From NCBI GenBank assembly GCA_963995525.1, contig OZ023207.1, forward strand, positions 3,688,105 through 3,752,104: a stretch of 64,000 nt of DNA, given 5' to 3'. The translations under genes were made by a program, and so were the position numbers. The notes under the pieces were generated by a model. That model saw nothing but the letters and a program-made list of their open reading frames with translations. It was not told the DNA's origin and made no database searches. This DNA comes from Escarpia spicata (lineage: Eukaryota; Annelida; Polychaeta; Sabellida; Siboglinidae). This document shows positions 21,853 through 40,539 of this stretch, piece by piece (position 1 is the first letter of the stretch; each line of letters begins with the position of its first letter).

Positions 21853-22413
21853 TTACAAACACTGTGTAACATTGTTGAACCACGTCGAAATCATGTTAGC
21901 CGTTTTACTTCGAACTGACGGGAAAAAGATTAAATAAATCATACTATTGACAGAAGAATTGCACATCATTATCCAAACTGCTGCAAATCTATACGAATAA
22001 GGCAAATATTTGTTCATACCTATGACTGATATGAATACGTGTATTATAATAGGAATAGTTACAATCAGATACGACAGACATATAAACAAAATACTTCTAC
22101 CAGAGCGAATGGATTTCAAAGTCACCGATGGAATGCTTTCAACATAGGCAGCTCCACCACCGATTGAGTTCACTTGCGCGGTTATTTGAAGGTGAGTTCG
22201 CACAATCACGGACAATATCCTTGCATTGGCATAAACGATGACAATGACCGGTACTACTATCACCAGTATCAAACCTGAAAGTAGTGTAGCTTCAATTGAG
22301 GAAGTTATTTCTACATCGAACATGCATGTGTCAATGCCCCACATTGTTGTTCCTTGGAGAAATGCCGCAGATAAAATCGCCCCAGTCAACCAAATGCAGC
22401 AAATGATGACGTA
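21853..22413 (-). pseudogene. GPCR gene, C-terminal half (TM4-TM7), cut by Polinton
   Basis: 187 codons, uninterrupted, matching residues 129-314 of the intact paralogue at 45400-46344 at most positions: TM4 start YVIICCIWLTGA, extracellular-loop Cys in DTCMF, TM5, the IL3 stretch SIGGGAAYVES, TM6 and the TM7 box NSSVNSMIYLIFF. At 22414 the frame runs into the Polinton terminal repeat. The N-terminal half (TM1-TM3) is at 39085-39471 on the same strand. The two halves were one intronless gene of about 315 codons before insertion; neither half can make a receptor now. Confidence 0.92.
22408..22413. other. Polinton target-site duplication, left copy
   Basis: GACGTA directly before the left terminal repeat. 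Its partner is GACCTA at 39082-39087, one base different. The paralogous GPCR has AACGTA at the equivalent position. Six bp is the usual Polinton duplication length. Confidence 0.85.
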
Positions 22414-22715
22414 AGTAGTATACAAACGAGGCAGAGGCTCGCCCCGCCCCTTTTTGACCTACTTTAGGCCTAACTCTATGCATAAAAAACGTCCTTATCT
22501 TTTTCGGGAACCTACTTATAAAAAAAAGATCAAAAGGTTTTTGTGACACTAAACGTTTTCGGGAACCTACTTATAAAAAATGTGATTGATGACCTGTCAC
22601 TTTTGATTGATTACCCTTCCCTTGAGGTGCCACCTAGCGGTGATCCCAGTGATTAATTTAACCCTAGCGATCAACGTCGGACCTAGCGTGTGCTTACGTA
22701 AGCATTTATATAGCG
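22414..22715 (+). repeat. Polinton left terminal inverted repeat
   Basis: Matches the reverse complement of 38780-39081 almost base for base. It contains a doubled block TTTTCGGGAACCTACTTATA (near 22499 and 22555), the CTCF-like motif on the minus strand at 22627-22640, and at its inner edge the palindrome TGCTTACGTAAGCA plus TTTATATAG. Confidence 0.95.
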
Positions 22716-22915
22716 CTTACGTAAGCATATATATATATATATATATATATATAGCGTCCCTAGCGTGTGCTTACGTAAGCATTTATATAGTGCTTACGTA
22801 AATATATATATATATATATTTATATATAGCGCTTACGTAAGCATTTATATAGTGTGCTTACGTAAGCATTTATATAGCGTGTGTTTACGTAAGTATTTAT
22901 ATAGCTAAAACCACT
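22691..22915 (+). promoter_or_regulatory. Array of TTACGTAA palindromes with TATA-like boxes
   Basis: Seven copies (two imperfect) of the palindrome TGCTTACGTAAGCA or its core, starting near 22691, 22714, 22768, 22791, 22830, 22855 and 22882, most followed by TTTATATAG; two TA runs separate them. TTACGTAA is the known core of PAR-bZIP/E4BP4-type binding sites. The TATA-like boxes face inward to the element's genes. Promoter or enhancer function is inferred. Confidence 0.55.
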
Positions 22916-23260
22916 GTGGTTATAACTGCGCTAAACCTACTGTGTATGAGAATACCCCGCTGTACCCTATACAGCGCTGAGCGATTGCAGCAGAGGTGGC
23001 CTATGATCCGGCGGCCTAGTTGCGGGCGGTTAAATTTAGCTCTACGGCTTAGCTGGCGTTGTGCGTTTAACGGCGTAAATTTAGCCGTATAGTTGGCGCT
23101 GTGCGTTTAACAAAATGAAACCAAATGCATTCAGTGGTGAAACGTTTAAAATGTACTCAGCGGCCTGGTAAGGCAGGATGTTTATGTGCGGTGGATATAG
23201 ACGAATGGGAAGCAACGGTGTAAGTAATACAGTATTTTATTAAAAAGGAACTAGAATGTT
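22916..23260. other. Polinton non-coding left region
   Basis: No gene. A short duplication around 23032-23110 repeats TTTAGC...GGCG(T/C)TGTGCGTTTAAC. A minus-strand AATAAA (plus-strand TTTATT near 23234-23240) lies just past the minus-strand ORF that ends at 23261. Confidence 0.5.
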
Positions 23261-23740
23261 CTAGCAATCACGGAGCGCCTCCCGGGGACTTTGCGTCCAG
23301 GCTCTTGTAATAGCGGCGCGTGAACCGTCAGTGTCCCGTGTCGCACTTCCAAGATGCGGGAGATGCGTCGAGCGGGAATTGGCGGCATCAAAGCGCCGTT
23401 GTAACATGCTAGCACGTCCGGCGGCAATCAACGGCGCGTGAAAGCCGCGTCGTTCGTATATCTCGTCCCGTGGTATCGGCGTATACCACAACCCGTTTGA
23501 CCCCCGTATTGAAAACGATGATGTGAGTCCATCGGGTTCAACGTCATCGCTGTCAGGTGTCGGTGGTCGGCTTACGGCTGCTGGTGGAGTGACCGGCCTG
23601 TTGATGGCTGGTGGCTGGTGGCTGGCTGCGTGGTGTCGGGAGGACGACGCATGTAGGTTTGCGGGTAAGGAATCCGCGTGTAGGCAGTTGGATTCTGTGA
23701 AACATGAATAACGTCTGTGGATAATGAGGAGGCTCCTAAA
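23261..23740 (-). CDS. Unrecognised minus-strand ORF near left terminus
   Basis: The frame is open from about 23740 down to a stop at 23261, but I find no ATG in it; a recoverable section is 23261-23491 (WYTPIPRDEIYERRG, then an Arg/Ala/Ser-rich tail). The upstream part is Pro/Ser/Thr-rich. Support is the GC-rich composition shared with other Polinton genes and an AATAAA signal about 20 bp past the stop. No family is recognised. It could be the last exon of a spliced gene, or chance. Confidence 0.3.
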   Translation of the reverse strand, partial: FRSLLIIHRRYSCFTESNCLHADSLPANLHASSSRHHAASHQPPAINRPVTPPAAVSRPPTPDSDDVEPDGLTSSFSIRGSNGLWYTPIPRDEIYERRGFHAPLIAAGRASMLQRRFDAANSRSTHLPHLGSATRDTDGSRAAITRAWTQSPREALRDC

Positions 23741-24560
23741 TTAATGAGACACAACATGAATAATGAGCCTCTTATTAATTAATTAATAAAGACTCATGTA
23801 AAAGCCAATCTACCGCTCTATTGATAAAGAACTAAAAAATAAATAATAAAGAATAGGACTCATGTAAAAGCCAACTTACCGCTCTATTGCTAAATGCCTG
23901 TGAATAATGAGGAGGCTCCCAAATTAATGAGAACTAATACACAACATGAATAATGAGGTTCTTATTAATTAAAAGTAATTAATAAAGAATAGGACTCATG
24001 TAAAAGCCAACGTACCGCTCTATTGTTAAAAATAATTAATAGGACTCATGTAAAAGCAAACTTACCGCTCTATTGCTAAATAATAAGAACTAAATAAAAT
24101 AAATAATAATTTTGCGGGTAAGGAATCCGCGTGTAGGCAGTTGGATTCTGTGAAACATGAATAACGCCTGTGAATAATGAGGAGGCTCCTAAATTAATGA
24201 AACGCAACATGAATAATGAGCCTCTTATTAATTAATTAATAAAGACTCATGTAAAAGCCAATCTACCGCTCTATTGATAAAGAACTAAAAATAAATAATA
24301 AAGAATAGGACTCATGTAAAAGCCAACTTACCGCTCTATTGCTAAATGCCTGTGAATAATGAGGAGGCTCCCAAATTAATGAGAACTAATTCACAACATG
24401 AATAATGAGGTTCTTATTAATTAAAAGTAATTAATAAAGAATAGGACTCATGTAAAAGCCAACGTACCGCTCTATTGTTAAAAATAATTCATAGGACTCA
24501 TGTAAAAGCCAACTTACCGCTCTATTGCTAAATAATAAGAACTAAATAAAATAAATAATA
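23657..24560. repeat. 454-bp tandem duplication containing eight iterons
   Basis: TTTGCGGGTAAGGAATCCGC begins copies at 23658 and about 24112; the copies are nearly identical. Each holds four iterons of the form GGACTCATGTAAAAGCCAAC followed by (T/G)TACCGCTCTATTG (near 23792, 23858, 23995, 24046 and their partners 454 bp later), plus AATAATGAGGAGGCTCC blocks. AT-rich and non-coding. It could be a replication or transcription control region. Confidence 0.9.
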
Positions 24561-25248
24561 ATAACTCACCGCTGCATTTTCGTAGAAGACGTTGTACCCG
24601 ACGCCATACTTGTATGAAAATGAGCAACGACCGCTGATTTTTTTCCTAAAGCAAAACTACGCAATTATGCGTTAAGAGCGCATGCGCGAAGGCGACGCAA
24701 AAACACTGAATGTGAAGAGAGAACGAAAAGATAAAAGCATGAAATTAAGCGTTGTATATGATTAGTTAGGACTCGGGAAACGTGTGGTGCAGTAATATGA
24801 GAGAAAATCGATGTAAAAGTCACATTTGACAACGAACGCACTAACATAACCGTTGATTTTTTCCTAAAGCAAATACCTCGGAGCCGAGTGGCGACGCAAA
24901 ACACTGATAAGCTTATCGCGATAGGAATGTGAAGAGAGAACACTGCCGTTTCAAAAACACTAAACGAAACGCTAAAAACATGAAATTAAGCGTTGTATAG
25001 GATCAGTCGGTCTTAGGGAATTATGTGGTGCATTTATATAATATAAATTCGATGTAAATACACATTTGACAACGAACGCACTAACATGACCGGTGATTTT
25101 TTTCTTAAAGCAAATACCTCGGAGACTAGTCAGTTATGCGTTAGGGCGCATGCGCAAAATGTTGTAATAGAACTGTAGATTAGCGCGTTATATGTTAAGT
25201 GCGTATACGCCATATGTTGTGCATATATAAAACGGTTGAAAAATTGTT
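24560..25248. repeat. About 230-bp degenerate triplicated block and RPA-like gene promoter
   Basis: CCG(C/T/G)TGATTTTTTTCCTAAAGCA recurs near 24631, 24850 and 25090, each with GAATGTGAAGAGAGAAC, AAACATGAAATTAAGCGTTG and CACATTTGACAACGAACGCA partners. A TATA box (CATATATAAAA, 25222-25232) precedes the RPA-like gene. Otherwise non-coding. Confidence 0.75.
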
Positions 25249-25311
25249 ATGTTGTATAACGCAAGTGGTCTGACTTATTACAGCAGCAGCATACGTCATC
25301 CAGCCGCAAGA

Positions 25312-26022
25312 ATGGCCGACACTACTGAGATAACACCGAAAAAGCTTAAGGCAATACGCAAGCAGGCGTCAAAGGCGACCGGAGGTCAGCAGCAGCCGAC
25401 AGCAGCGGTCGGAGCAACGCCTGCTGATGCTAAGAGGCCCGTAGTGGTTATTGCGCCGCCGATCGGCCGTAAGCGTGGGGCCGACGAAGCGGCTTTGGAG
25501 AAGCCGGCGCGGAGCGCGTCGCTTGAAAGAGAGTGCAGCGCCGAATCGTCGACACGCGCTACATTGGTGAGTGTGAGGGAGCTGGCGAGTGCCGAGAATG
25601 GCGTGTATAAAATTAAGACGCCCGTCCTTATTGAGGCTGTGTAGTACAAAGACAAGTGCACTTATAGAGGATGTTCTCGGTGCCGGCGCAAGCTGTATCA
25701 GAAAGTCAAAGATGGTCTTATGATATGTCGAACGCACGGTGAGCAGGGTGTGGGGAAGAATTTCTTTGCGATGCGTGTGATGGTGCGAGATGGTGAGGAC
25801 GACGAAGATGAGCTTTGGCTTACGCTGTTTGACACGCAAATGGCTAATCTCGTTGAGTACCGGGCCGATTACTTGGAGGAATTAAGTGACGAGGACCTTC
25901 GTGATACTGTGCTGGAGTTAGCCGGCACGAAAGTGGAGCTCAGTGTGCGTAAGACGACTTGGCAAGGAGAGGCGTCTTATACGGTGCGCACACAGAAGAG
26001 ATACGACGACGATGATGACTAA
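25312..26022 (+). pseudogene. RPA1 (DBD-C)-like ssDNA-binding protein with in-frame TAG
   Basis: A 236-codon frame is broken once by TAG at 25642-25644. The N-terminal 80 residues are Lys/Ala/Pro-rich and probably disordered. After a start of the OB fold (NGVYKIKTPVLIEAV) comes a zinc ribbon: C-x4-C-x2-C in TYRGCSRCRRK, then MICRTHGE. The rest has the DBD-C pattern of the large subunit of replication protein A: DEDELWLTLFDTQ, YRADYLEELSDED, ending TYTVR-like and an Asp run. The role would be coating single-stranded DNA during protein-primed replication. A TATA box at 25222 favours the ATG at 25312 over 25249. It is not part of the usual Polinton core. Confidence 0.7.
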
Positions 26023-26039
26023 TGTGTTTCTTGTGTTGT

Positions 26040-26545
26040 TTGTGTAGGAGTCCCCGCTGCTGGTAGCGTTGGTGACGCATAAACCGACAAGTGACTAGGC
26101 TGCGCGCCTACTAGCCGAGATAGCCGAAAATTACATAATGGCATGGTGCTCACATTACGAAGCGAACTTATTTTAAGCATGACATTTTTTTTCCTGTAGG
26201 ATGTGCGTCGCGTACTGCTGGACATGTTAGCGAACAACGAAAGGATGCGTGCAAGGTATGCGGAGGTTGCCACGTTCGTACAAACACTGCTGGACCGGGG
26301 AGTGGCGGATAGTGAGGCGAAAGATGCTGCGCTGCTGGCCCGGGTTGATAAGACGGACTAATCATAATAATGTGTGTTTGTAGAGGGCCGAACGTGAAAA
26401 CGCCGCTGAGGTTGCCGCGTTCGAGAGAATACTACTGAACTACGACAATGCGGTGCGTGCAAAGTATGCGGAGGTGTTAGTACAAACACCGATGGACAGG
26501 GAACAGTGAGAACGCTGCTGCGGAATACTTATAATGTATGTTTGT
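26040..26545 (+). other. Two short duplicated ORF fragments behind acceptor-like motifs
   Basis: Two related open stretches occur: 26203-26361 (with MRARYAEVATFVQTLLDRG) and 26384-26509 (with VRAKYAEVLVQTPMDRE), clearly duplicates of one another and helix-rich. Each, and the gene at 26560, is preceded by a T/G-rich tract ending TGTAG (26045, 26200, 26383, 26547); two of the four have a CTAAT just upstream (near 26021 and 26358). These look like branch point plus 3' splice sites, so small introns or trans-splice sites are possible. No function is recognised. Confidence 0.35.
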
Positions 26546-26559
26546 AGGCGGCACGCACC

Positions 26560-27162
26560 ATGCGTAGACGTGTCGATAACGAGTTGGACGTTATCATCGA
26601 GGAGGCCCTTGGTGTGCGAACCCCACCGCCGGCTTACGAAAGTCTGTACCAGTTGGTGCCAACGTGTTGGTCCACAACACGGCCGGAAGTGAGACAAGTC
26701 GTCGCGATGGGCCGGGGCCCGTTGGCCTGTCGCTATGAGCGGCACGCAACGTCTCTCTTCGCCGAACACGTCGGGGAGATGATACTGGAGAGGGCGCGCG
26801 ATCGATGCGGCGCATGCGAACCCAATGAAGGCTGCCCGTACGTGCATATGGTCGACTATCGTGCGGGTCGGCCGACTCGTGTGTACACACAGCGCTACGA
26901 CAACGTGTCCGACCTCGTCACGCATCACTTCAACGCCGTGTTGGAGACGTGTCTACATCGATCGCTTATACCGACATTCACGCGTCTCGTGCAGCTACTG
27001 CACGCTAAGGCGACCGGACAGCAGCAACCGGGGCGTGCGGGGAAATGTATCTGGTCCAGTTCGTGTCGGACTGGCTGCTAGGCACGGACTGGCGCGACTT
27101 CGTCAACCGCGCTCTACTGGAATCGGCCGTCCATGTGTACATTCAGTGCCGAAGTGGTCTCT
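26560..27162 (+). pseudogene. Unrecognised Polinton protein with PPxY motif, frameshifted
   Basis: The ATG at 26560 sits in a good context (CACCATG). Open to 27081; the 3' part continues in another frame (a stretch with FVSDWLLGTDWRDFV) to a TAA at about 27160, so one frameshift lies near 27040-27050, in or beside a G-run. Near the N-terminus PPPAYESLYQL holds a PPxY motif (residues 23-26) and overlapping YxxL-type sequence. A central CGAC...GCPYVH cluster might bind zinc. AATAAA follows at about 27228. I do not recognise a family; its position beside PolB is the only context. Confidence 0.55.
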
Positions 27163-27302
27163 AATCTGAATGAACATTACTGCTTATTTGCACTTGAACA
27201 TTACTGCTGATTTGCTTTGTCGTTTTAATAAATTCGCTTTATGTTGTACGATACGCTTAATAAAACGTTGAAAAGGTACGTTCCGTTTCCGAGTTACTTA
27301 AC

Positions 27303-27386
<84 letters not shown>

Positions 27387-27569: not shown

Positions 27570-30500
27570 ATGCCTCCGCCTCCTACTAGGTGGCAATGTC
27601 CGAAATGCGGTACTTATTTCGCAAAACAGTCGACGTTAGAGCGACACGCAAAGAGTTCGAAACGATGCGGCGATAACGCGCTATTCGTAAAGCGACGAGA
27701 GTGTCCGAAATACGGCGCAACGTACAGTACGCGCTCCATTGTGCTACGACACCTGAGGGAGCGGTGCGGCCGTCATCAGGTGTCGCCACCTCCTGATGAT
27801 CCACCTTCCAATCCACCACCGGCCGACAACGACGTCGTGGACGAGCGCGTCGTGGACGAGCATCGACGTAGCATAGAGACGTCGATAGCGCGCGGTACCG
27901 TGCAGTCCCGCTACAACTATCGCATGACCGCCTGTACGAGTACGCGGGTGCTCGAACCGCGTCTGAGGGTTATGTTTCGCGAACAAAAGAATGCGTTTAA
28001 AATTAACGTGAGCTATGGTTTCGTGTTACGACACAAGGTGTCGGGTCGTTACCGCTATTTTCAATCGTCCTGTAACTGCTGCGGTCGCCTCCTCGAAACG
28101 CCCGCCCTCGTTACCGATAGCCGTTCTTTCGAACGCTTCCTCGACGTCGTGCGCACGACCGACGTACTACAGTCCGTCGTCGCGCAGCGCCCCGTCTCGG
28201 GGTGGGTGGTCGAGCTCGTAACGAACGCCACCTACTTCGTGAACGCCATCCTAAACCATCCTATCGGGTGCGTTGGCGCCGCGCTCCCCGCCTACGTGCG
28301 CAACAACAAGCACGTCGTGACGTTGACGAACGATCGTCGAGGCACGCTCTACGACGATCATCTATGCCTCTTCCGGTGCATCGGCCTCCACCTGCAAGGC
28401 GGCGGCCGACAACGCGGAACGCGGAACGGCCCCAAAATAAATTCGACCCGTTTAACGCGAGTCGCTAAACAACTAAACGCGCGCTACGGCACGGCCTCGA
28501 CGAACGGCGTGCGCCTGAATGAACTGGAACGCGTGGAGTCGGTTTTCGGCATCAACATCGCCGTTAATCGATTGACGGCGGCTGGCGCCGCCGAACTAGT
28601 CCGTAGGTCGCTCGAAACGCACCCCACGACCCTGAACGTCAACCTGTACGAGACGCACTTCTCGTACATAATCGACCTGCGCGCGTACGCGAAAACGTAC
28701 AAGTGCTCGAAATGCGGTAACTCCCTCTGGCTGTACCCGTCGGATTTTCGACGTCACGAAGCGACGTGCGAAGGTGGCGTTCGTCACGTGTTTCCCGGCG
28801 GCGTCTACCGACCGACGCCGTCCGTATTTCAGCGGCTCGACGACGAAGGCATCGACGTCGGCGCCGACGACCTGCGCTACTATCCGTACCGCGCTACATT
28901 CGATTTTGAATGCTATTTTGCCGCCAACGAGCTGCCGCCGGATACCTACAAATGCCGGTGGCTAGCGCGACACGAACTGCTCAGCGTGAGCGTCACGACG
29001 AACGTGCCAGGACACGAAGCGGCGCGCTGTTACGCCACAACCGGCGATTCGGCCGAACTAGCGCGCCGCCTCATCGATGACCTGGAAGCCGTGAGCGCGG
29101 CGGCGTGCGCGGCTCTGCGCCCCCGCTATGACGCGGTCTTCGAGGCGCTCGACGCGCTCGACGAAGACTGGCGGCGACGACGAGGCGACGACAACGATGC
29201 GTCACCGTACGCCGCACTCGCCGACCGCCCGTGGACGCACCTTCGTCAAATGCCCGTACTGGGCTTCAACAGCGGTAAGTACGATTTGAATGTCGTCAAA
29301 AAGTACTTGACCCCCTGCTCATAACCGACGACGAGCAGCACATATCGTCGGCGTTCACCATTAAACGACAGAACAATTACATGTGTCTGACGACGTCGAC
29401 GTTGAAATTCCTCGACATAACTAATTACCTCGCGCCCGGTGTCAGCTACGAGCGCTATCTGAAAGCGTACGGCTGCGCGGCGACGAAGGGGTACTTTCCG
29501 TACGAGTAAATCGACGCGTTGACGCGCCTGGACGAGACCGTCCTGCCGCCGCGCGAGACTTTCTACAGCCACCTGAAACGCGAAGGAATCTCCGCGGAGG
29601 CGTACGAAATTTGTGCGAAGGCATGGCGTGACGAGCGCATGACGACGATGCGCGATTTTCTAATCTGGTATAATAACCGAGATGTGGTGCCGTTTCTCGA
29701 GGCCCTCGAGCGGCAGTTCGCCTTCTACCGACGCCAGCGCATCGACATGTTGAAGGACGCCATCAGCGTACCGGGGTTGACGTTTTTGGACCTATTCAAC
29801 GACCTGCCGCTGTCAATCCATTTCTCGCTGTTCAACGAACCCAACAAAGACCTGCACCGCCCACTGTAGTCGCAGATCGTCGACGGCACATCGATCATCT
29901 TCGCGCGTCATCACGAGGCCGGCGTGACGTCGATTCGAGGCACCAACCCATGTCGTTCGATAGTCGGCTATGACGCGAACGGCCTCTATCTATCGGCGAT
30001 GATGCGGAAGATGCCGACGGGTTGGTACACGCACCGACGCGCGGAGAACGGTTTTCGAGCTGAACGCGTGCACCGCTACGGTCGTATGGCCGTGGAGTGG
30101 TTGACGTACGAGGCGGAACGAACCGGCACTCGTATACGGCACCAGTTGAACGTACGCGAGAAGCTCGTCGGCAATTACCGAGTCGACGGTTGGTGCGCCG
30201 CCACGCGAACGGCGTATCAATTTCACGGCTGCTACTTTCACGGATGCCCGACGTGCCAGACGCACGTGACGACGAACGCCGTCAACGGTCGACCGATGAC
30301 GACGCTGTACGCCGCGACGATCGCCGTGACGACCTACCTGCGCCGCCACGTCGACGCCGTCGTCGAAATGTGGGAGTGCCAGTGGCGAGCCGTGCGACCC
30401 CCCGCGGCGCCGACGCCGCCCGACGCGTCACGATTGCAACCGGGGCGGGGCCCCCTTACGCGCTCGACGATACTGGAGGTAGTACGCGACGGCTCTTTGT

Positions 30501-31705
30501 TCGCCCTCGTGCAGTGCGATATCGCCGTGCCGGAAACGCTGCGCGCTAAGTTCGCCGAAATGCAGCCCATATTCAAGAACGTCGATATCACGCGCGACGA
30601 TCTCAGCCCGTTTATGCGCCGCTACGCCGAGTCGCACGACCTACTCACCCGACCTCAACGGACGCTCGTCAGTAGCTACTTCGGCACGGCGATCGTGCTC
30701 GCCACGCCCCTCCTACGCTGGTATCTGGAGCACGGGCTCGTCGTCGCGCGCATCTACCAGGTGATCGAGTACACGCCGATCGCGTTCTTTCGCCGCTTCG
30801 GCGACACGGTTTCGATGGCGCGACGCGAGGGCGACGTCGACCCTGACAAATCGATCATCGCCGATACATTTAAACTACTCGGCAACAGTTCGTACGGGAA
30901 AACGATTACGCTCGTCGATCGGCACCGGGATATCAAGTACGCCACGCCGGTCGGCGCCTCGCAACTCGTCAACAAACGTCGCTTCCGGCAACTCGACGTC
31001 GTCGTCGACGACGAGCTGTACGAAGTGGCGCTGAAAAAGCGCACCGTCGTCTACGGTCTGCCGATTCAAATCGGCTATTTCGTGTATCAATACGCGATAT
31101 TGAGAATGCTCGAGTTCTATTACGATTTCGTCGACGCTTACATCTACCGCCCGCTCTTCCAGTACTGCGCTATGGACACCGACTCGGCGTACATCGCCCT
31201 TGCGGGCCACGACATCGACGCGCTCATACCGGAAGCGCGGCGCGAACACTACTTCCGGAATCGTTCGCTCTGGTTTCCGGCCGAATGTTGCGACGCGCAC
31301 GTGGACGCGTACGTAAGGCGCCGTGTCGCCGGACTGACGTGGGAGGCGGGGGACTGCTGTGCGCGCCGGCTTCTGTTCGATCGTCGAACGCCGGGTCTCT
31401 TCAAAGAAGAGTGGCGCGGCGACGGAATCGTGGCTCTGTGCAGCAAGACGTACTACTGCTTCCGCGGCGACAACGGCGCGAAGTACAGCACGAAGGGTCT
31501 GAGCAAGCGTCAGAAGGATATCGACGAGAACACCTTCCTCGCCGTACTGCGCGGCCGACGCAGCGGCGTCGGCTTGAACCGCGGCTTCCAGGTGAAAGAC
31601 TCGTCCGTGTTGACGTACGTTCAAGAGCACGCGACGTTGAGCTACTTCTACGCTAAACGCCGCGTGCTCGACGACGGTGTCACCACGGCACCGATACTCG
31701 TCTAA
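27570..31705 (+). pseudogene. Protein-primed family B DNA polymerase (Polinton PolB)
   Basis: Replicates the linear element from its protein-capped ends. N-terminus: a CCHC-type finger (C10, C13, H26, C33), a second decayed finger in which the second Cys is Tyr (CPKYG), and a third near residue 380 (YKCSKCG). Exonuclease: Exo I FDFECYF (about 28905), Exo II NSGKYDLN (about 29268). Polymerase: motif A DANGLYLSAM (about 29970), motif B KLLGNSSYG (about 30872), motif C MDTDSAY (31172). Between A and B, at 30182-30260, is a VDGWC...FHGCYFHGCP..C block resembling a Vsr/REase-like insert. Lesions: a one-base loss in a C-run near 29312, TAA at 29507 and TAG at 29867. About 1,380 codons in all. TATA box at 27531; an ATTAAA lies near 31806. 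Confidence 0.95.
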
Positions 31706-31883: not shown

Positions 31884-32342
31884 CTATGGCTTTAGCCAAT
31901 CGAATACGAGACAGTCATTGGACACCCGATCGGTGCCGAATAGGTTCTGGAACGTCGTCAACGGCATACCGCGACATCGGAGGAGTAGGTAGGCGACGCA
32001 ATATTGACCGCACACGTTAGAGACGACGCTCTGCAACCGCTTGTCGTTGTACGTCCACGCGTCGCCGCAGTGACGGTGCAGGAACGCGCGGAAGTCGGCG
32101 TGCAGCGGCGGCAGACCGTACGAATCGAAGTACTCGCCGCCGCCGCCTCGCCGGTCGACGTAGACGGCCACCCAGTGTTCCCCCGGCTCGCCGCCGTCGT
32201 CGGTGTTGCACACGAAGGCCATCGGGTAAGTGGCGGCGGCGGTGGGGGTGGTAAGTAGCGCGTCTTTAGGCACGACGCCGACGACGATGTGTTTAGCGTA
32301 CGCATTGCGTTCCAGGCGACGCATCAGTTGGAACGTATCCAT
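31884..32342 (-). CDS. Adenain-like cysteine protease (virion maturation)
   Basis: 152 residues, intact. The adenovirus-protease (C5) order of catalytic residues is visible: His in GEHWVAVYVD (about 67), Asp in EYFDSYGL (about 82), Gln in RLQSVV (about 113) and nucleophile Cys in VCGQYCVAYL (about 121-125). Length fits the compact Polinton form. The expected role is cleavage of capsid and core precursor proteins during maturation. The ATG lies only 2 bp after the MCP stop. It is the last gene of the leftward array, followed by an AATAAA at about 31845. One of the few undamaged genes of the element. Confidence 0.9.
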   Translation of the reverse strand: MDTFQLMRRLERNAYAKHIVVGVVPKDALLTTPTAAATYPMAFVCNTDDGGEPGEHWVAVYVDRRGGGGEYFDSYGLPPLHADFRAFLHRHCGDAWTYNDKRLQSVVSNVCGQYCVAYLLLRCRGMPLTTFQNLFGTDRVSNDCLVFDWLKP

Positions 32343-32344
32343 AG

Positions 32345-33658
32345 TTACGACGTAAAGTCGTACAGGACGTTCCGGCTCCTGTCGATCTCCATCACCGTCT
32401 CGAATTCCGCGTACACGACGACGTTCGTCGGTCGGGGTAGCGGCGTCTCGAAGTGCATTTCAGCGCCCACGGTCCCCTGACGCACGACGTTGAAATGGTC
32501 CCCGTCGCAACAGTCGGGGGTCAGGTCGAAAGCGAAGACGGTGTAGTCGGCGTCGAAGTCCGAGCGCGATATGTCGTTCCCCTCGTCCTCACCCGCCTTT
32601 CCGGTGGCATCGAAGAGATTTATGTAGCTTCGGATGCACCGGTGGCGCGGGAAGTCCGGCTGCAGCGGCTTTATCGGCACCTGACGTCCGTCGACGATGA
32701 GCGTGAGGAAGTTTATGTCGTTGTGCAGCGCGTCGAACGGATTTCTAATGTAGTCTCCGTTATAGGCGGCTTTGTCGATCATCATCAGGATTAGTCGTTT
32801 CGGAATCACACCCATCTACAAGTTCTCGTGCGTATGCGACAGCGTGCCTGCCGTTATCGAGAACGACTTGCAGTCGACGCTGCGCATCGGGAACTTAGCC
32901 GTTCCCAATCCCCACGCTTTGATGTGACCCAGCTGGACTTCCGGGTTCAACTTCACTTTTCGTACGTACAGGCAAATCGATCGTATCACGATACGGCACC
33001 CCGGCGCGACTGCCGGGGTCATGAGTGCGAAGGCGTCCTTCGAGCGCACCATGCGTATTTTCGTGTCGACGCCGTTCGGTAGGAGGTGGTTTAGCATAAA
33101 CGCGTCGACGTGTAGGCGTCCCATCATCTCCACCTCTTCGCTGGCCGCCGTTAGGTGGCGCCGCGCTACGAACCCGGTGTTGTCGTCCCCGCGCGCTTTC
33201 ATGTGTCCGGGGCTGTCTTTGTACCACAACGACCCCGTGAGATGCGATCGTTTCGCGTCGCTACCGTAACTCAGCAAGGTCTCGATGTAGGCCCGGTACG
33301 CGTACGTATTGGTCGACGGCGTCACGAGCGTGCCGTTCAGCGACACGTCGATTTGACTGAACATCGAATGCAGGAAATTGTTGACCGGCGCCACGTTGGC
33401 GCCGGCCCCCAGATTGGTACCGTCCCCCTGAATCACTTTGAAGCGGACGAACGTTTGAAGGCTCGCCAGGGCCGTATAGTCGTTGCCTGACCCCGGGATG
33501 AGGAACTCGATAGGGCCGCCGGCGTCGAGAGCCGTCAGCGGTTGGTAGACGGTCCACTGACAGCTCTCGATGTTCCTCTGCGTCACCGGTCCGGTGAACA
33601 GGTCCATTTCTGCCTTCACGCCCTCGCACGCTGTGCAGCTATTCACGAACGCCATCAT
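32345..33658 (-). pseudogene. Major capsid protein (double jelly roll) with in-frame TAG
   Basis: Two same-frame segments of 280 and 156 codons are separated only by TAG at 32816-32818. The N-terminal section has the Polinton MCP pattern, with CQWTVYQPLT, a SMFSQIDVSLNG strand region and YRAYIETLLSYG. The C-terminal section begins at the NPFDALHNDINFLTL region and continues into the second jelly roll (YINLFDATG, DYTVFAFDLTPD). Such proteins form the pseudo-hexameric capsomers of an icosahedral particle. Total 436 codons. The ATG overlaps the stop of the pX-like gene by one base (TAATG). Confidence 0.9.
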
Positions 33659-34061
33659 TACGCGTCGAATATATCGACCGGTCGACGCTCTCTCTTCCGT
33701 CTACTGACGGTCGTCACAGTTCGACGCGGCTTCTTTATACGCTGCACTTTTTTCCTCTTCGGCGCCTGCCCTTTCAATAGGCCGTCGAGAAGATCGACGC
33801 CGGCCTCCTTCTCGCGTCGTTTTACCGAAGCTTTCAGATTGCCGCCGGCGACGACGTCCCGCGCCACGCTCACGCCGGTTTTGAGCGCGCGTTTGCCAAC
33901 GCCATGGCGCCTCTCTTAAAAAGCGGCATGACGCTCCGAAACAGGCTCCCGAAGATATTACCCAGACCGTGTCCTCGTTGACCCCGACCACCGACGAAGA
34001 CCGGCAGGTGATCGCCGACCTGTCGAACATAGTAGTCCTCGTACGGGTTCGTCGTCGGCAT
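33658..34061 (-). pseudogene. pX/pVI-like virion core protein, frameshifted
   Basis: Two overlapping frames. The first (33870-34061) has the conserved YEDYYVRQVGDHLPVFVGG, then QRGHGLGNIFGSLFRSVMP, a pattern I know from Polinton/adintovirus core proteins compared with adenovirus pX and pVI. The second (33658-33873) continues as VARDVVAGG and a Lys/Arg-rich tail with RKRERR. The break is a single-base shift near 33885-33900. Small, basic and with an amphipathic region: the likely role is genome condensation or membrane disruption at entry, which is inferred from the family. Confidence 0.75.
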
Positions 34062-34066
34062 CGTGG

Positions 34067-34933
34067 TTAAAACAATCTCGATTTACAGCGTCTGATGTGA
34101 AGCGTCGCCACTAGCTTTCCCCGCTCGAATGGTATCGGTTGACCGCGATCGTCTCTTATATCGACCTCGATCGTATCGAATTGATGCCGCAGCAGCTTCA
34201 CGTATTGGACGCGGTCGAACGTTTCCGAAATAACGCTACCGTTCGTACCGAAGACGGCGATGTTTCGAAGGAGCGGCGCGTACACGTCACCGACGACGCG
34301 CGATTCCACGAGATCCGTGTACACGTATAGGGTGTCGACGCCCGCCTCATATCCACCGTATTGTTACCTTCGTACGCGTACGTGTACGCGACGGGGCTGG
34401 TCTCGATAACGACGCCGCCTCCCGGCTCGGGGCCCATCATCGGGGGACTCGTGATAACGTTGTTATGGAAACCTAGCACGCTCTTCAGACGGCTCGTATC
34501 GGGTAGGGTAAAGGTGACACCCGGCGACATATACAGCGTCATTCGGTTAGAGACGTCGCTGTACTCTAGACGCACCTTGACCTGATCGCTGCTCAATTTC
34601 ATTAGCTGCTCGTTGATCTGGCGCCGCAGCTCGTGAACGTCGTTGTAGAAACCGTGACTAATCGTAACCTGTCGGTATATCATGACACCGTCTATGGTCG
34701 TGTAAAGACCCGGATCGCCCAGCGGGGCCGACAAGTAGAAGTAGGCGTCCTCCTTTCTCACGTTGTACCACGTGTGCGGGTATTGTAGCGTCACCAGTCC
34801 GCATTCCCATTCTCCACCCCCCGATAGATCGAAACGGCAGCGTCGTGATGTAGTGCGTCAACGTATTTTCGGGGTGCCGCTTCATAGACGCGTTGCTCGG
34901 TAGCGTCAGGTAAAAGTCAGACGATACCGCCAT
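34067..34933 (-). pseudogene. Minor capsid protein (penton-like, single jelly roll), two frameshifts
   Basis: Three overlapping segments: 34658-34933 (starts MAVSSDFYLTLPSNAS, then PENTLTHYITTLP), 34198-34794 (TWYNVRKEDAYFYL, YNDVHELRRQINE, KSVLGFHNN) and 34067-34324 (YTDLVESRVVGD, LRNIAVFG, then DTIEVDIRDDRGQPIPF). This is the family of Polinton minor capsid proteins that form the five-fold vertices. Frameshifts lie near 34790-34820 and near 34335-34345. Roughly 290 codons. It overlaps the preceding membrane-protein gene by 17 bp, and its stop is 5 bp from the pX-like start. Confidence 0.85.
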
Positions 34934-35258
34934 CGCTTTGTCGTCGTCGACCGCCGCCGCTCATAGACGGACTCGGGAGCAGGTAACCGAGACAATTGCT
35001 CAACAGCGCCGTCCACAGGTTGGAGTCGCCTTGACCCCGCGTCAGATTGTATATACTAACGGCGATGACGAAGTACAGGACGATGACCTGACAGATGAAT
35101 ACGATTTCGACCTTAGGGCATTCGTTACCGCAGAGCCGCCATGGAACAGGTTCGAGGACAGTGTCGAACTCGGCGGGTGCGTCGATAACGTCCTTGCTGG
35201 CGGGCACGTCTGGAGTGGTATCATCGATGGTAGGCGACGCGTCAGAATCGTCGATCAT
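34917..35258 (-). CDS. Conserved Polinton single-pass membrane protein
   Basis: 113 residues, open. An acidic N-terminus is followed by PVPWRLCGNECPKVE, a hydrophobic segment (about 50-70: IVFICQVIVLYFVIAVSIYN), then NLWTALLSNCLGYLLPSPS. I recognise this arrangement (Cys-bearing stem, one membrane helix, LLS-C-GYLLP box) from proteins encoded beside the minor capsid gene in other Polintons; the role is unknown. A minus-strand TATAAG element (about 35296-35303) lies some 40 bp before the ATG, suggesting this gene heads the capsid array. Confidence 0.65.
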   Translation of the reverse strand: MIDDSDASPTIDDTTPDVPASKDVIDAPAEFDTVLEPVPWRLCGNECPKVEIVFICQVIVLYFVIAVSIYNLTRGQGDSNLWTALLSNCLGYLLPSPSMSGGGRRRQSDGGIV

Positions 35259-35403
35259 CGTCGCGCCACTGCGGTCTGCTGATACAGCAGGGCCCCTTAT
35301 ACGGAAAGAACGAAGTTCAGTTGCATAAGCCCGCCTCGTGCAGCCGCCAGCATCCCTCGTGGCGAGTCCAACGAGTCGTCATGCCGCCGCCGCCGCCGCT
35401 CTA
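35259..35403. promoter_or_regulatory. Intergenic region between integrase and capsid array
   Basis: The only clear gap of more than 100 bp in the leftward gene set. It holds the TATAAG element for the membrane-protein/capsid array and a GCC-rich tract (CCGCCGCCGCCGC at 35384-35396) near the integrase stop. Confidence 0.4.
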
Positions 35404-36140
35404 TTATAGGTCCACGAGCGACTCGGCGTCGATCCAGCTGTTGAAGGAGGCCGGATAACCGCTCCATTTTACGAACGCCTCCGACCCGCCGCGCCGACGG
35501 CGACGCTGTAGAACCGCCTCCATGCGATACAGTTTGTCCTTCGGAACGACTACGCGTTGTAGTTCCGGTTCGTAGAAAGCGCCCTCTACCGGCGTCCCGG
35601 CGTCGTCCTTCAGGCGATAAACGGGCGGTTCGGACGGGTTCGCCTCTACGACGGTGAAGAGCTCCTCGCTCCAGTAAGCCATGTATCCTTTTTTGAATTT
35701 GCCCCTCGTCTTACTGATACGCACGCGATCTTCCTCGCGCAGTTTCGGTTTTTTCCGCCGGCCGCCGCCGCCGCCGTACATGCGTTGCCATACGACCTCC
35801 TGATTCGTCGCGTCGACGCTCGCCGGCGTCCTACCGATGCTTCTTCAACGGAACGCACCACGCCCGCTTCGAAAACACGTCGATGACCGTCAATAGGAAT
35901 GTTATACCGTCGTTGTGTTTTTTCCGCCTAGTCAAATCGACCAGATCGGCTTGCCACTGCTGGTTTCGACCGCCCACGATGACGCAACGTCGTTTGAAAT
36001 GTCGTTTAACCGGTTTGTGTAGGGTATAGGCGTCCTGCGCCGCTAACCACCTCTCGACGGCCGGTCGTCGTCGTCGTGTCGAAGCCCGATGCAACGCGTC
36101 GACGCCGCCGTAACTCCCCCCCGTTTCGGATCGAAGTAGA
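35404..36140 (-). pseudogene. Retrovirus-like integrase with chromodomain, catalytic core deleted
   Basis: The N-terminal zinc/DNA-binding region reads SYGGVDAL, AAQDAYTLHKPVK, then the core start WQADLVDL (first catalytic Asp) and TVIDVFSKRAWCVPLKK. At about 35842 the sequence jumps straight to the end of the core (GRTPASVDATNQEVVWQRMYG) in another frame, so roughly 100 residues holding the second Asp and the Glu are missing. The C-terminal 126 codons (35404-35781) contain the VRISK...FKKGYMAYW SH3-like region and a chromodomain (VKWSGYPASFNSWI). Further damage: a shift in a 7-base G-run at about 36116-36122 and no start codon. It cannot catalyse strand transfer. Confidence 0.9.
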
Positions 36141-36146
36141 GTTAAT

Positions 36147-36356
36147 TCAGTTCGTCGTCGTCGTCGTCGTCAACGGTTCGTTGTCGAAGCTTTCGTTTTG
36201 GACGACGACGACGACGCCACCCGGACACCATGATGACGACGACGACGACGACGACCAAAGAACGACGAATATTATACACATATAGAGAGCGATAACCGTG
36301 ATGACAAGGCCGACGACGATGGCCGTTCGTTGTGCCGGCATCACGCCGATTCCCAC
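36147..36356 (-). CDS. Small single-pass membrane protein with Ser/Thr runs
   Basis: 69 codons. After MGIGVMPAQR comes a 20-plus-residue hydrophobic helix (AIVVGLVITVIALYMCII), then eight Ser, five Val and a final run of Thr. Support: it starts inside the last codons of the preceding gene (16-bp overlap) and ends right at the integrase start, the same tight spacing as its neighbours. The homopolymers come from trinucleotide runs (GAC/GTC) that could also be simple repeat growth. No family recognised. Confidence 0.45.
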   Translation of the reverse strand: MGIGVMPAQRTAIVVGLVITVIALYMCIIFVVLWSSSSSSSSWCPGGVVVVVQNESFDNEPLTTTTTTN

Positions 36357-37081
36357 GTCACGACGTCCAACGCTCGTTGTCTCTTTCTAGACCCACGTCG
36401 TTTTCGCCCCGCCTTCCCCGCTGAACTGACCGCCGACTCCTCCGACTCTTCTCTTTGTCGCAGCCGCCGCCGCCGCTCCATGTACTCCCGATACCGCGGG
36501 TTGCCGACGAACTCCATAGGAATGTTCATACCCTTCAAGCGCAACCCGAACTCTCGCCATCCTAGGGGCTGTGTTGTCTTTGTTCTCGTTCGCATAAGAT
36601 CGTTCACTAGATCGACCATGTTACTCCCCGCGATCGTTTTACCGTCGTACACGAATTCGCCGCGGTCGTTCCATCGAACCAACGGATCGACTTTCATTTT
36701 CGCGATAAGCAGACCCGCCTTCCCTTTCAGCGTTTTCGGCATGCTGGCTACGATTTCGCGCTCTACGGCCTCCGACGATGGCGGTGCCGCCACCACCGCG
36801 GGCGGCGCCGGTATCTCGCCGCCGTCGGCTTTGACCATCGACACGCGTACCGGTTGCGCCGCTCGAGCCGCCTCTATAGTGTTGTAGCGACTCAGCAGTT
36901 GATTGTACGACGCCACCTTTTCGCGTTCGGATAAATCCGATCGCTCTAGAATGTCCTTCATGTCGCTCTCCAGGCTACTCAGCACACGTGATCGGGGCGT
37001 GCTGCTCGACGGCTGTGGTAGAAGGAGGCGTTCCACCAATCGCGGGTCGACCAACGCCATCTTCTTTGCGTACTGCATCAA
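36341..37081 (-). CDS. Conserved Polinton protein of unknown function, 246 aa
   Basis: Open throughout. It begins MMQYAKKMALVDPRLVERL, has a Ser/Pro linker, a helical region (LSSLESDMKDILERSDLSEREKVASYNQ-type, LLSRYN), a middle KTLKGKAGLLIAKMK, a folded-looking stretch with VRWNDRGEFVYDGKTIAGSN and LGWREFGLRLKG, and a very basic tail with KAGRKRRGSRKRQR. I recognise the start and the GSN-x-VDLVNDLMR region as a recurrent Polinton protein without known role; the basic tail could bind DNA or be a nuclear signal. Its ATG directly follows the stop of the upstream gene. Confidence 0.65.
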   Translation of the reverse strand: MMQYAKKMALVDPRLVERLLLPQPSSSTPRSRVLSSLESDMKDILERSDLSEREKVASYNQLLSRYNTIEAARAAQPVRVSMVKADGGEIPAPPAVVAAPPSSEAVEREIVASMPKTLKGKAGLLIAKMKVDPLVRWNDRGEFVYDGKTIAGSNMVDLVNDLMRTRTKTTQPLGWREFGLRLKGMNIPMEFVGNPRYREYMERRRRLRQREESEESAVSSAGKAGRKRRGSRKRQRALDVVTWESA

Positions 37082-37492
37082 TTAACCCCCGATGACCTGT
37101 TTGAGTAGTGGCAGGAGAACTGTGCTCGTTAAAGGCGCTAGCAGGGCCGTCAGAAAACCACCCGCCCCCGTTTGCAAGATGGCTCGCTTCCGCTTCACCA
37201 GAATTCGTTTGTTGACCAGGTCACGCATGTGATCTCTGTATTTCGTCAACACGCGTTTCTGCTTCGGCGACACCTTCACGTTCCCTCTCAGAATATTGTA
37301 CGCGCAATCGCACAGACTACATATGAGACCGACCTCCGAGTGGGCGAGCACGGCTTTTTGCAGATCGATGTTCCGCTTATGCCTATCCAACAGCTGCAAG
37401 GCGAAAATGTGTCTCTTCACGCGTTGCTCCGACACCGTCGGCGCCACCTTTGGTCGTCGCTTCGCCGCTACCACTGCGCGTCGTCCCGTCAT
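37082..37492 (-). CDS. Basic Polinton protein with hydrophobic C-terminus, 136 aa
   Basis: Open. The N-terminus is Arg/Lys-rich (RRAVVAAKRRPKV), followed by a helical stretch (RHIFALQLLDRHKRN), a Cys pair ICSLCDCAYNILRG and a KRKRAILQTG basic patch. It ends in a glycine-bounded hydrophobic segment, GGFLTALLAPLTSTVLL. Basic plus hydrophobic-tail proteins of this kind are common in Polintons and adintoviruses and have been compared with virion membrane-active peptides; I cannot assign this one. Its ATG overlaps the ATPase stop by 4 bp. Confidence 0.6.
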   Translation of the reverse strand: MTGRRAVVAAKRRPKVAPTVSEQRVKRHIFALQLLDRHKRNIDLQKAVLAHSEVGLICSLCDCAYNILRGNVKVSPKQKRVLTKYRDHMRDLVNKRILVKRKRAILQTGAGGFLTALLAPLTSTVLLPLLKQVIGG

Positions 37493-38043
37493 AACGACTG
37501 TTTCAGATCCACGAAGAGATAGCCGTACGCCACCGACGTCGCGTCTTTGAAAGCCTCTATCATGTAGTTGACCTTTCCCGGGTACATCTGTTTCGCAAGG
37601 TCACCTACTTGACCGGCGCCTCGGGGGTTCTTGAATAGCGCTAAGTATTGGGCGTTCAGGCTGATTGTAGGGTTTTCTTTCCCTTTCGGAAACATGTTCT
37701 GTCGGAGTTGTACGACCGACGTATTACAATGATGATTTTTTTTAGTAAATAGTGCCGTCACCCCGCTATCGGTCTCCTCCATGAGGTCGTCGAGTACTAA
37801 AGGCGTCCTCTTTTTACCGTCTAAATGTGTCGTAGCCGGCAGGCCGTCTACGAAGTCTATTTTCGGAGGCATAGACGAGTAGGCGGTCTGCCACTGCCCG
37901 TAGCACCACAGGATTTTTTCGGGGGGTGTATCGATCATAGCGTGTCGTATCAGACGGTCGACGAACGTCGTCTTACCGCATCCCGTAGGACCGGATACTA
38001 TACACGTAAACGGATGCTTCAACAGCGGTCCGCCCATTTTCAC
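37489..38043 (-). CDS. Genome-packaging ATPase (FtsK/HerA, A32-like)
   Basis: 184 residues, open. Walker A is GPTGCGKTTF (about 19-28) and Walker B is TPLVLDDLMEE (about 80-90), in the order and spacing of the A32-type packaging ATPases of Polintons and large DNA viruses. Downstream are a sensor-like VVQLRQNMFPKG and NAQYLALFKNPR. It would power translocation of the genome into the capsid. It overlaps the next gene by 4 bp and lies 22 bp after the NADAR-like gene, suggesting joint expression. Confidence 0.9.
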   Translation of the reverse strand: MKMGGPLLKHPFTCIVSGPTGCGKTTFVDRLIRHAMIDTPPEKILWCYGQWQTAYSSMPPKIDFVDGLPATTHLDGKKRTPLVLDDLMEETDSGVTALFTKKNHHCNTSVVQLRQNMFPKGKENPTISLNAQYLALFKNPRGAGQVGDLAKQMYPGKVNYMIEAFKDATSVAYGYLFVDLKQSL

Positions 38044-38065
38044 GACTGATACTGGCTAACGCTTT

Positions 38066-38513
38066 TTACGCGTCTTTATAAGCGTCGCGCACCTCCATCA
38101 ACAGTTTACCGAGCTTGTTCTCCCCCGCAACGTCCCCGATCCTGGTACCCCAGAAACCCTCCCTACTCGGTACCCATTCGGCGTCCCCGGTGGCCAATAG
38201 TTCAGCCTTCAACTTGGCTGACCCGCCAAACTTACTCATCAACAACGCCTTCATACACGCGACCCTAACGGCGTTCCATTCGGTTCCCGTTCTCTTTTTT
38301 TCGAATTCCGTAAATGAGTCGTTTCGCTAAATAGGGCGATCGCGATCTTTTGATACACGCGGCGCATTCGAGGTCTTCGTTGAATATCGCTTTCCTATAC
38401 TGATAGGCGTGCTCGACGGATCGGAAGCCCCGACTGTACGCCGTCGATCGGCACGCGTACATATTCGACAAGAACGAGCGCGATCCGCCAAACTTTATAG
38501 GATCCGACAACAT
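38066..38513 (-). pseudogene. NADAR (YbiA/DUF1768)-domain N-glycosidase-like, frameshifted
   Basis: The NADAR fold is read across two frames: RSFLSNMYACR (F-x-N motif), RSVEHAYQYRKA (conserved Glu), then after a shift in a 7-A run near 38296-38303 a conserved Trp, MKALLMSKFGG, LLATGDAEWVPS, GFWGTRIGD and ENKLGKLLMEVRD. NADAR proteins split N-glycosidic bonds; studied members remove ADP-ribose from guanine or cleave riboflavin intermediates. The ATG at 38513 is chosen because a TATATAAG box (38545-38553, minus strand) lies within the longer frame from 38585. It is the first leftward gene inside the right terminus and sits directly before the ATPase. One frameshift makes it non-functional here. 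Confidence 0.85.
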
Positions 38514-38779
38514 GACTACCGATAACCCGCTACCGGCACCACTTATATAGAGCCGCCGGCACGCCGCCGCCGCTAGATGGAGCATCTAAAAAGAGGGCCG
38601 ACGTACGGATTCGGACCCGGAATCTTGCGATCCCTAGTCGAACGCTCTCCCAGGAGAGCTAATCCGGCGCCGGCGCTTATGAGTGGTTTTATCGCGGTTA
38701 TATACAACTATACGCAACGGCAGCACACCGCTATGCTTACGAGGTTGATCGCTAGGGACGCTGCTTACGTAACTAGGGA
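38514..38779. promoter_or_regulatory. Leader and promoter region of the leftward genes
   Basis: Contains the minus-strand TATATAAG box (38545-38553) for the NADAR-like gene, another TATATAAC (about 38697-38704), and a decayed TGCTTACGTAAC half-palindrome at 38762-38773. No gene. Confidence 0.5.
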
Positions 38780-39081
38780 CGCTATATAAATGCTTACGTA
38801 AGCACACGCTAGGTCCGACGTTGATCGGTAGGGTTAAATTAATCACTGGGATCACCGCTAGGTGGCACCTCAAGGGAAGGTTAATCAATCAAATGTGACA
38901 GGTCATCAATCACGTTTTTTTATAAGTAGGTTCCCGAAAACGTTTAGTGTCACAAAAACCCTTTGATCTTTTTTTATAAGTAGGTTCCCGAAAAAGATAA
39001 GGACGTTTTTTATGCATAGAGTTAGGCCTAAAGTAGGTCAAAAAGGGGCGGGGCGAGCCTCTGCCCCGTTTGTATACTACT
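38780..39081 (-). repeat. Polinton right terminal inverted repeat
   Basis: Reverse complement of 22414-22715 with roughly seven substitutions and small A-run length changes. On its inner edge lies CGCTATATAAA next to the palindrome TGCTTACGTAAGCA (38791-38804), facing the leftward genes. The CTCF-like motif is at 38855-38868, plus strand. Confidence 0.95.
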
Positions 39082-39087
39082 GACCTA
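39082..39087. other. Polinton target-site duplication, right copy
   Basis: GACCTA, differing at one base from GACGTA on the left. That change turns the receptor's Tyr codon into TAG on the minus strand, which is why the N-terminal GPCR half ends here. Confidence 0.85.
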
Positions 39088-39471
39088 ACATCGATTCCTA
39101 GTGAGTATTTGTTCATATCTCAGAGGTTTCGTTATGGCAACCATCTTGCACACAGTCACCCAGCAGAGACTGTGCATGGAGTTGAATACGAACCAAGAAC
39201 TGCAGACTACTTGAAGCTTAGGCAGGTAGCGAGTCATGTTACGTACATTCGGCGTCAAGTTGGAACACACGGCAGCGCTGATGGGCATCGTCGTACAGCC
39301 GTTGGCGAGATCAGCCAGCGTGAGAGATAACATGAACAGCGTCTTACGATCTTCGCGCAGTTGCGGATGTTTGACAATTACCGCGATCACGAGCAAGTTC
39401 AACGTTATGTTCATCACGATCACAGCACTTATTACCACAGGCTTGATGTCTTCAAAATAGCTTACATCCAT
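39085..39471 (-). pseudogene. GPCR gene, N-terminal half (TM1-TM3), cut by Polinton
   Basis: 128 codons from the ATG at 39471, matching residues 1-128 of the intact paralogue: TM1 AVIVMNITLNLLVIAVIV, the KHPQLREDRKTLFML loop, TM2 with LADLANGC, the TM3 Cys in LQVVCSSWF, WVTVCKMVAITKPLRYEQ (in place of DRY) and the TM4 lead-in LTRNRC. It stops at a TAG created in the target duplication. The rest of the gene is at 21853-22413. No other break is seen, so the gene was probably intact at insertion. Confidence 0.92.
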
Positions 39472-40505: not shown

Positions 40506-40539
40506 CCGTCGGAATCATCTATCGAACCTAAATAGTTCA

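What the first reader, a model, noticed from the sequence alone, without database searches (positions are those of the whole stretch)
21853..39471. Polinton integrated inside a GPCR codon pair, with the empty site preserved in a paralogue
The receptor halves at 39085-39471 and 21853-22413 join at residues 128/129 of the intact paralogue. A 6-bp duplication (GACGTA/GACCTA) and 302-bp inverted repeats starting AG mark exact ends. The paralogue at 45400 carries ...AT-AACGTA-AC... at the same place (minus-strand view), confirming the unoccupied state. One substitution in the right duplication makes a TAG in the receptor frame. This dates the insertion after the GPCR duplication and gives a clean boundary for the element.
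Basis: seen in the sequence. Interest (0 to 1): 0.75.

Follow-up and report, generated by a model that had tools for sequence, protein, structure and literature searches.

The report
Virus-like transposon splitting a receptor gene
A 16.7-kb virus-like transposon (a Polinton, also called Maverick) has inserted cleanly into an animal receptor gene, and two sister copies of the gene still show the site before insertion, so its ends and relative age can be read directly; the event is ordinary, though the element also carries an unexpected NADAR-type gene.

Summary
Observation confirmed, interpretation supported. The element spans 22414-39081 (16,668 bp), with 302-bp terminal inverted repeats (295 of 303 columns identical) that begin AGTAGT and end ACTACT, flanked by GACGTA and GACCTA. 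It splits a rhodopsin-like receptor after codon 128; the duplicated 6 bp are codons 129-130, in phase. Neutral divergence of the paralogues is about 0.25, of the two repeats 0.020; if the repeats were identical at insertion, the element arrived in roughly the last 8% (3-18%) of the time since the gene duplicated. Gene content is Polinton-like, but several genes carry stops or frame changes; four in-frame stops are seen, 3.7 expected from decay after insertion. So: an ordinary, fairly young, decaying Polinton. Besides, the element holds a frameshifted NADAR-domain gene; the searches made found none reported in Polintons. Host species, sister copies and empty alleles remain unchecked, because the genome search did not complete.

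The parts
22408..22413 (.). left target-site duplication GACGTA (receptor codons 129-130, minus strand)
39082..39087 (.). right target-site duplication GACCTA (one difference; gives TAG in the receptor frame)
22414..22715 (+). left terminal inverted repeat, 302 bp, starts (AGT)2
38780..39081 (-). right terminal inverted repeat, 302 bp, ends (ACT)2
39088..39471 (-). receptor A, N-terminal half, codons 1-128
21853..22413 (-). receptor A, C-terminal half, codons 129-314 and stop
45400..46344 (+). intact paralogue B, 314 aa rhodopsin-like receptor (Pfam 7tm_1); empty site 45784-45789
48015..48196 (-). third receptor fragment C with empty site at 48170-48175
25249..26022 (+). RPA-like (Rep_fac-A_C) gene of the element, in-frame TAG at 25642-25644
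   Evidence: (E 4e-8)
27570..31705 (+). family B DNA polymerase, broken: frame change near 29.30-29.36 kb, in-frame stops at 29507-29509 and 29867-29869
31884..32342 (-). putative adenain/Ulp1-like cysteine protease, 152 aa, no lesion seen
   Evidence: weak match to a viral cysteine protease, E 0.0011; C48 E 0.18
32345..33658 (-). putative major capsid protein, split by in-frame TAG at 32816-32818; identity by recall of sequence and by position, no database match
34067..34794 (-). putative minor capsid (penton) protein, frame change near 34.2-34.36 kb; identity by recall
34917..35378 (-). open frame with a hydrophobic segment, function unknown
35404..36169 (-). retrovirus-type integrase core (rve) and chromodomain in two frames (broken; N-terminal part not found)
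36341..37081 (-). open frame, 246 aa, unknown
37082..37492 (-). open frame, 136 aa, unknown
37489..38043 (-). packaging ATPase (Adeno_IVa2/Pox_A32 type); C-terminus conserved in the aligned relatives is missing
38066..38513 (-). NADAR-domain gene in two frames (38513-38268 and 38254-38066)

Best explanation
A Polinton/Maverick inserted as one linear 16.7-kb DNA into codons 129-130 of one member of a local receptor family in an animal genome. Shown: its retrovirus-type integrase gene (broken), the 6-bp duplication of the target, the (AGT)2 ends, and the unoccupied site in two paralogues. Inferred from established knowledge of the family: the DNA was made by protein-primed replication by its own polymerase B and joined to a 6-bp staggered cut by the integrase, and gap repair made the duplication. 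Inferred from divergence: the element was intact or nearly so on arrival, in about the last tenth of the time since the receptors duplicated, disrupted the receptor at once, and has since decayed along with it at about the neutral rate.
For: Exact ends, 302-bp repeats and 6-bp duplication. Two empty paralogous sites. Colinear homology of gene and flanks with the intact paralogue. Gene content: polymerase B third piece (853 homologues with E <= 0.001 among 7993 scored candidates, 120 listed; the top ones by E-value 62% identical over the whole piece, some lower-ranked up to 65% over 68%), ATPase (1385 homologues among 1557 candidates), rve plus chromodomain. Element coding stretches are 53-60% G+C, the host DNA around 38-40% (but the receptor N-half is 47%, and the element's repeats and left non-coding 2.5 kb are 40-42%). 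Clock: TIR divergence 0.020 against 0.24-0.26 between receptor flanks and dS 0.258. 4 in-frame stops seen, 3.7 expected (1.3-7.8) over 10,314 coding sites. The disrupted receptor departs from the family at 3 of 87 columns conserved at 90%, the intact paralogue at 2 of 87, homologue median 3; 8 and 8 of 119 at 80%, 2 and 2 of 57 at 95%.
Against: One of the six duplicated bases differs. Synonymous divergence is uneven between the halves (0.383 N-half, 0.178 C-half; dN 0.097 and 0.122), which a single clock does not explain. Identical repeats at insertion is an assumption. The 18 coding pieces used for the stop count were chosen by me, a fifth stop (ATPase, TGA 37489-37491) is uncertain, and four frame changes (polymerase, minor capsid candidate, integrase, NADAR) have no computed expectation. 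Pfam's polymerase and rve matches are below its own cut-offs (16.9 of 25.8 bits, 20.5 of 32.6 bits). Capsid pieces have no usable database match here (structure model useless, pLDDT 28.8).
Confidence: 0.94

Rival explanations
1. The element was already dead when it inserted and was mobilised by enzymes of another copy.
For: Six of its recognised genes carry lesions (two of them capsid candidates named by recall), a seventh, the ATPase, looks truncated, while the receptor has one stop.
Against: The element has about 11 times the coding length of the receptor (10,314 against 942 sites); the four stops agree with 3.7 expected from decay after insertion, and the receptor's one stop with 0.32 expected. 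The 95% range (1.3-7.8) is wide, so some lesions may be older.
Confidence: 0.15
2. Assembly artefact: two receptor fragments and an unrelated element were joined wrongly, or the frameshifts are sequencing errors.
For: No reads were available. Two of the eight TIR differences are one-base gaps in A runs.
Against: A misjoin would not give a 6-bp duplication at exact (AGT)2 termini at both ends, in phase in one receptor gene, with colinear flanks on both sides. In-frame stops with the same frame open on both sides are not homopolymer length errors. For the frameshifts alone this stays possible.
Confidence: 0.03
3. The insertion is older than the receptor duplication and the other copies lost it by precise excision or by gene conversion from an empty allele.
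For: Uneven dS between the halves hints at some gene conversion in this family.
Against: Two separate copies would each need a perfect loss; TIR divergence is about a twelfth of the paralogues'.
Confidence: 0.03

Closest known systems
Polinton/Maverick, vertebrate intact elements (PMC8097293, passages seen)
   Same: Ends 5'-(AGT)2//(ACT)2-3', 6-bp target-site duplication, mean size about 17 kb there and 16.7 kb here, polymerase B, ATPase, integrase; most loci degraded (96% there).
   Different: Gene order: here polymerase B (with the RPA-like gene) on one strand and the other recognised core genes, ATPase included, on the other, whereas the paper groups polymerase, ATPase and PZ in one module; RPA-like and NADAR genes here.
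Polymerase B proteins that carry an organism's name in the list: Littorina saxatilis, Nucella lapillus, Oculina patagonica, Patiria miniata
   Same: 46-48% identical over 99-100% of the 611-aa polymerase piece.
   Different: The top-ranked relatives (58-62% over most of the piece) are ENA sequences without names, so the host was not identified.
NADAR domain of other viruses and of animals (PMC9503650, passages; PMC11125620, passages)
   Same: Pfam NADAR match in two frames.
   Different: PMC9503650's passages list phages, nucleocytoplasmic large DNA viruses and RNA viruses, and its text holds neither polinton nor maverick. PMC11125620 reports NADARs in animals themselves (arthropods, mollusks, echinoderms and others), so a captured host gene is possible here.

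Membership tests
Polinton/Maverick | Terminal inverted repeats with a conserved end motif, (AGT)2 or (AG)3 | tested here: met
   302 bp, AGTAGT...ACTACT; motif from PMC8097293
Polinton/Maverick | 6-bp target-site duplication | tested here: met
   GACGTA/GACCTA, 5 of 6; two empty paralogous sites
Polinton/Maverick | Protein-primed DNA polymerase B | tested here: met
   62% identity to the top homologues, several with Pfam DNA polymerase B annotation; Pfam's own match to the window piece is weak, E 0.0031, below cut-off; frame lesions. Protein priming itself is recalled, not tested.
Polinton/Maverick | Retrovirus-type integrase | tested here: met
   rve E 6e-4 (20.5 bits, below Pfam's cut-off 32.6) and chromodomain E 3e-7 (above its cut-off) in adjoining frames; N-terminal part not found
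Polinton/Maverick | Packaging ATPase | tested here: met
   Adeno_IVa2 26 bits, cut-off 21; 84% to the top homologue over 79% of the query
Polinton/Maverick | Cysteine protease | tested here: inconclusive
   E 0.0011 to a viral cysteine protease, C48 E 0.18
Polinton/Maverick | Double and single jelly-roll capsid proteins | tested here: inconclusive
   No usable match for the pieces: Pfam, NCBIfam (only a chance-level E 0.034 for the minor capsid candidate), PHROGs, PDB for the major capsid N-piece; model pLDDT 28.8. Assigned by recall and position.
Rhodopsin-like receptor (host gene) | 7tm_1 domain | tested here: met
   paralogue B: 7tm_1 E 1.3e-21; beta-adrenergic receptors top in the PDB, E 2.5e-13
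NADAR | NADAR profile over its length | tested here: met
   pieces match positions 10-79 (E 0.0011, 19.7 bits, below cut-off 35.1) and 93-161 (E 9.9e-10, 39.3 bits, above cut-off) of 163; TIGR02464 E 1e-5, below cut-off; phrog_1017 E 6e-11
NADAR | Hydrolysis of ADP-ribosylated guanine | not testable with these tools
   activity as stated in the abstract of PMC11125620

The most novel reading that the evidence does not exclude
This animal Polinton lineage carries its own NADAR enzyme gene next to the packaging ATPase, as large DNA viruses and some RNA viruses do, to undo host ADP-ribosylation; the young, nearly intact arrival of this copy means the lineage was active or infectious recently in this host.
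Probability: 0.3. Interest if true: 0.55.

Novelty: new member of a known kind. Interest (0 to 1): 0.33.

Why it matters
Clean Polinton insertions with a known empty site are useful for fixing element ends, target duplication and age relative to host genes, and this one shows the element interrupting a coding gene. It changes no concept. The NADAR gene, if found in intact relatives, would extend to Polintons a domain known from phages, large DNA viruses and RNA viruses.

Tried and rejected
Genome-wide search for sister copies and empty alleles: the tool did not answer in nine attempts. Relatives in IMG/VR by the polymerase piece, a polymerase alignment, the capsid N-piece and the ATPase: none confirmed. 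Structure of the putative capsid N-piece: useless model, not searched further. Host identification: the listed homologues are mostly unnamed; two ATPase hits (62-63%) are filed under a bacterial endosymbiont of the tubeworm Escarpia laminata, which I take as host DNA (inference), but this does not name the host of this window. tRNA-like stretch at 38668-38589 minus, considered as a tRNA or a Pol III RNA: ARAGORN 0 in the whole window (bacterial code), no tRNA among 26 Rfam matches up to E 5, fold little better than shuffles (z -1.22, 27 of 200 as good); the B-box-like pattern is the only match in the window but about one is expected by chance (own arithmetic, no call); left open. TAG among the in-frame stops (3 of 4) considered as readthrough: TAG is expected at 46% from codon use, so dropped. 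Frame errors in my first stop count (two pieces out of frame, one with its own stop) were corrected. Papers seen as passages only and not used further: PMC6431247, PMC11071308 (no NADAR in its text), PMC4028283 (none of the terms found). A search for OB-fold or cargo genes in Polintons listed 12 of 30 papers, none read for this.
Full report
Observation. The element is 22414-39081, 16,668 bp. The repeats align over 303 columns with 295 identities, 6 substitutions and 2 one-base gaps. In the receptor's reading direction the N-half ends ...CGA TGT followed by TAG GTC (right duplication), and the C-half begins TAC GTC (left duplication) ATC ATT; the intact paralogue reads CGA TGT TAC GTT ATC ATT. 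The insertion thus lies at codons 129-130, in phase.

A second empty site. A self-comparison of the window found a receptor fragment on the minus strand at 48196-48015, which also carries the uninterrupted site (CGATGT-TACGTG-ATCATT). Over 150 bases from the site the three copies are equally distant (122, 123 and 121 of 150 columns identical). The base that makes the TAG in the right duplication is therefore the odd one out against the left duplication and two paralogues.

Homology beyond the gene. Similarity of the split receptor with the paralogue runs on into both flanks, in one colinear inverted unit, and both halves find the paralogue as best match among the paralogue plus 120 homologues (120 listed of 224 found). 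This is one gene split in two, not two unrelated gene fragments.

What the element is. End motif (AGT)2//(ACT)2, 6-bp duplication and a size near 17 kb are those described for vertebrate Mavericks (PMC8097293, passages). Polymerase B is clear by homology (Pfam's own match is weak), the ATPase by homology and Pfam, the integrase by rve and chromodomain in adjoining frames (rve below Pfam's cut-off). Protease, major capsid and minor capsid are assigned by recalled sequence features, order and, for the protease, one weak match to a solved structure's sequence; no usable library match was found for the capsid pieces.

State of the element. RPA-like gene: in-frame TAG. Polymerase: one frame change and two in-frame stops. 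Major capsid candidate: in-frame TAG. Minor capsid candidate, integrase and NADAR: frame changes. ATPase: ends before the C-terminus conserved in the 11 relatives aligned. The protease candidate shows no lesion. The copy is not autonomous as it stands (inference from these lesions).

Age. TIR divergence is 0.0202 (Jukes-Cantor; 6 of 301, 95% 0.0073-0.043), so 0.010 per copy if identical at insertion. Neutral divergence of the receptor pair is 0.263 in the 5' flank (847 ungapped columns), 0.244 in the 3' flank (957 columns; both flank alignments also have many gaps, 64-65% identity with gaps counted) and dS 0.258 in the gene. The insertion then falls at about 8% of the time since duplication (3-18%). 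Cross-check: 10,314 coding sites in 18 pieces that I chose, at 0.010 substitutions each, would give 3.7 new stops (1.3-7.8); 4 are seen, 5 if the ATPase stop counts. This check uses the same TIR rate, so it tests consistency and is not a second clock. In the receptor 0.32 are expected and 1 is seen. Conserved receptor positions are as well kept in the split copy (3 of 87 departures) as in the intact one (2 of 87). These agree with an element that arrived working or nearly so and decayed in place. Against a simple clock, dS is 0.383 in the N-half and 0.178 in the C-half; gene conversion or small numbers may explain it, and I did not resolve it. No absolute age is given, because the host and its mutation rate are unknown.

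Novelty. Paralogous empty sites are a standard proof of insertion (recalled; a search for Maverick with empty site, target site duplication and paralogous listed 15 of 25 papers, none read for this). Insertions of large transposons in genes are ordinary (recalled). A search for Polinton or Maverick with disruption of coding sequence listed 10 of 27 papers, none read. I therefore make no claim that such an insertion is unreported; it is a new member of a known kind.

The NADAR gene. Between the ATPase and the right repeat lies a gene whose two pieces match NADAR positions 10-79 (weak, below cut-off) and 93-161 (above cut-off) of 163, one frame apart (a solved NADAR protein, 8bau, matched at E 0.0027). 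No paper in the library holds both Polinton and NADAR (0 papers); of 49 papers with at least two of NADAR, Maverick, polintovir and adintovir, the 10 listed have no NADAR. A survey of NAD and ADP-ribose systems in viruses places NADAR in phages, large DNA viruses and RNA viruses (PMC9503650, passages); animals carry NADARs of their own (PMC11125620, passages). Whether this is a stable Polinton gene or a stray capture, from the host for instance, needs other copies, which I could not search.

Noticed in passing
38513-38066 (minus): NADAR-domain gene inside the Polinton, in two frames, next to the packaging ATPase; not reported for Polintons in the searches made.
   Followed up: partly
38668-38589 (minus): tRNA-like stretch just upstream of the NADAR gene: D-arm-like hairpin, B-box-like GGTCCGAATCC (the only match to the pattern tried in both strands of the window, about one expected by chance) and a run of five T; not called by ARAGORN or Rfam.
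   Followed up: partly
25249-26022 (plus): RPA C-terminal-type OB-fold gene in the element (Rep_fac-A_C E 4e-8), a possible single-strand binding protein.
   Followed up: no
22682-22903 and 23658-24562: Inside the left end of the element: repeated TTACGTAA palindromes with TA runs, and a 452-bp unit duplicated in tandem at 98%.
   Followed up: no
40204-43377 with 48987-52627; 46244-48985 with 52999-55873: Large diverged duplications around the receptors, with further receptor fragments at 52971-53093 and 60460-60173.
   Followed up: no
9877-11397; 15669-16745; 18476-20622: Long tandem arrays (108 bp x 14, 36 bp x 30, 69 bp x 31); of four open frames tested in the last array, one matches DUF6358 just above Pfam's cut-off (29.6 against 28.4 bits).
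   Followed up: no
11403-12539 (plus): Reverse transcriptase open frame (RVT_1 E 8e-24), directly after the 108-bp tandem array.
   Followed up: no
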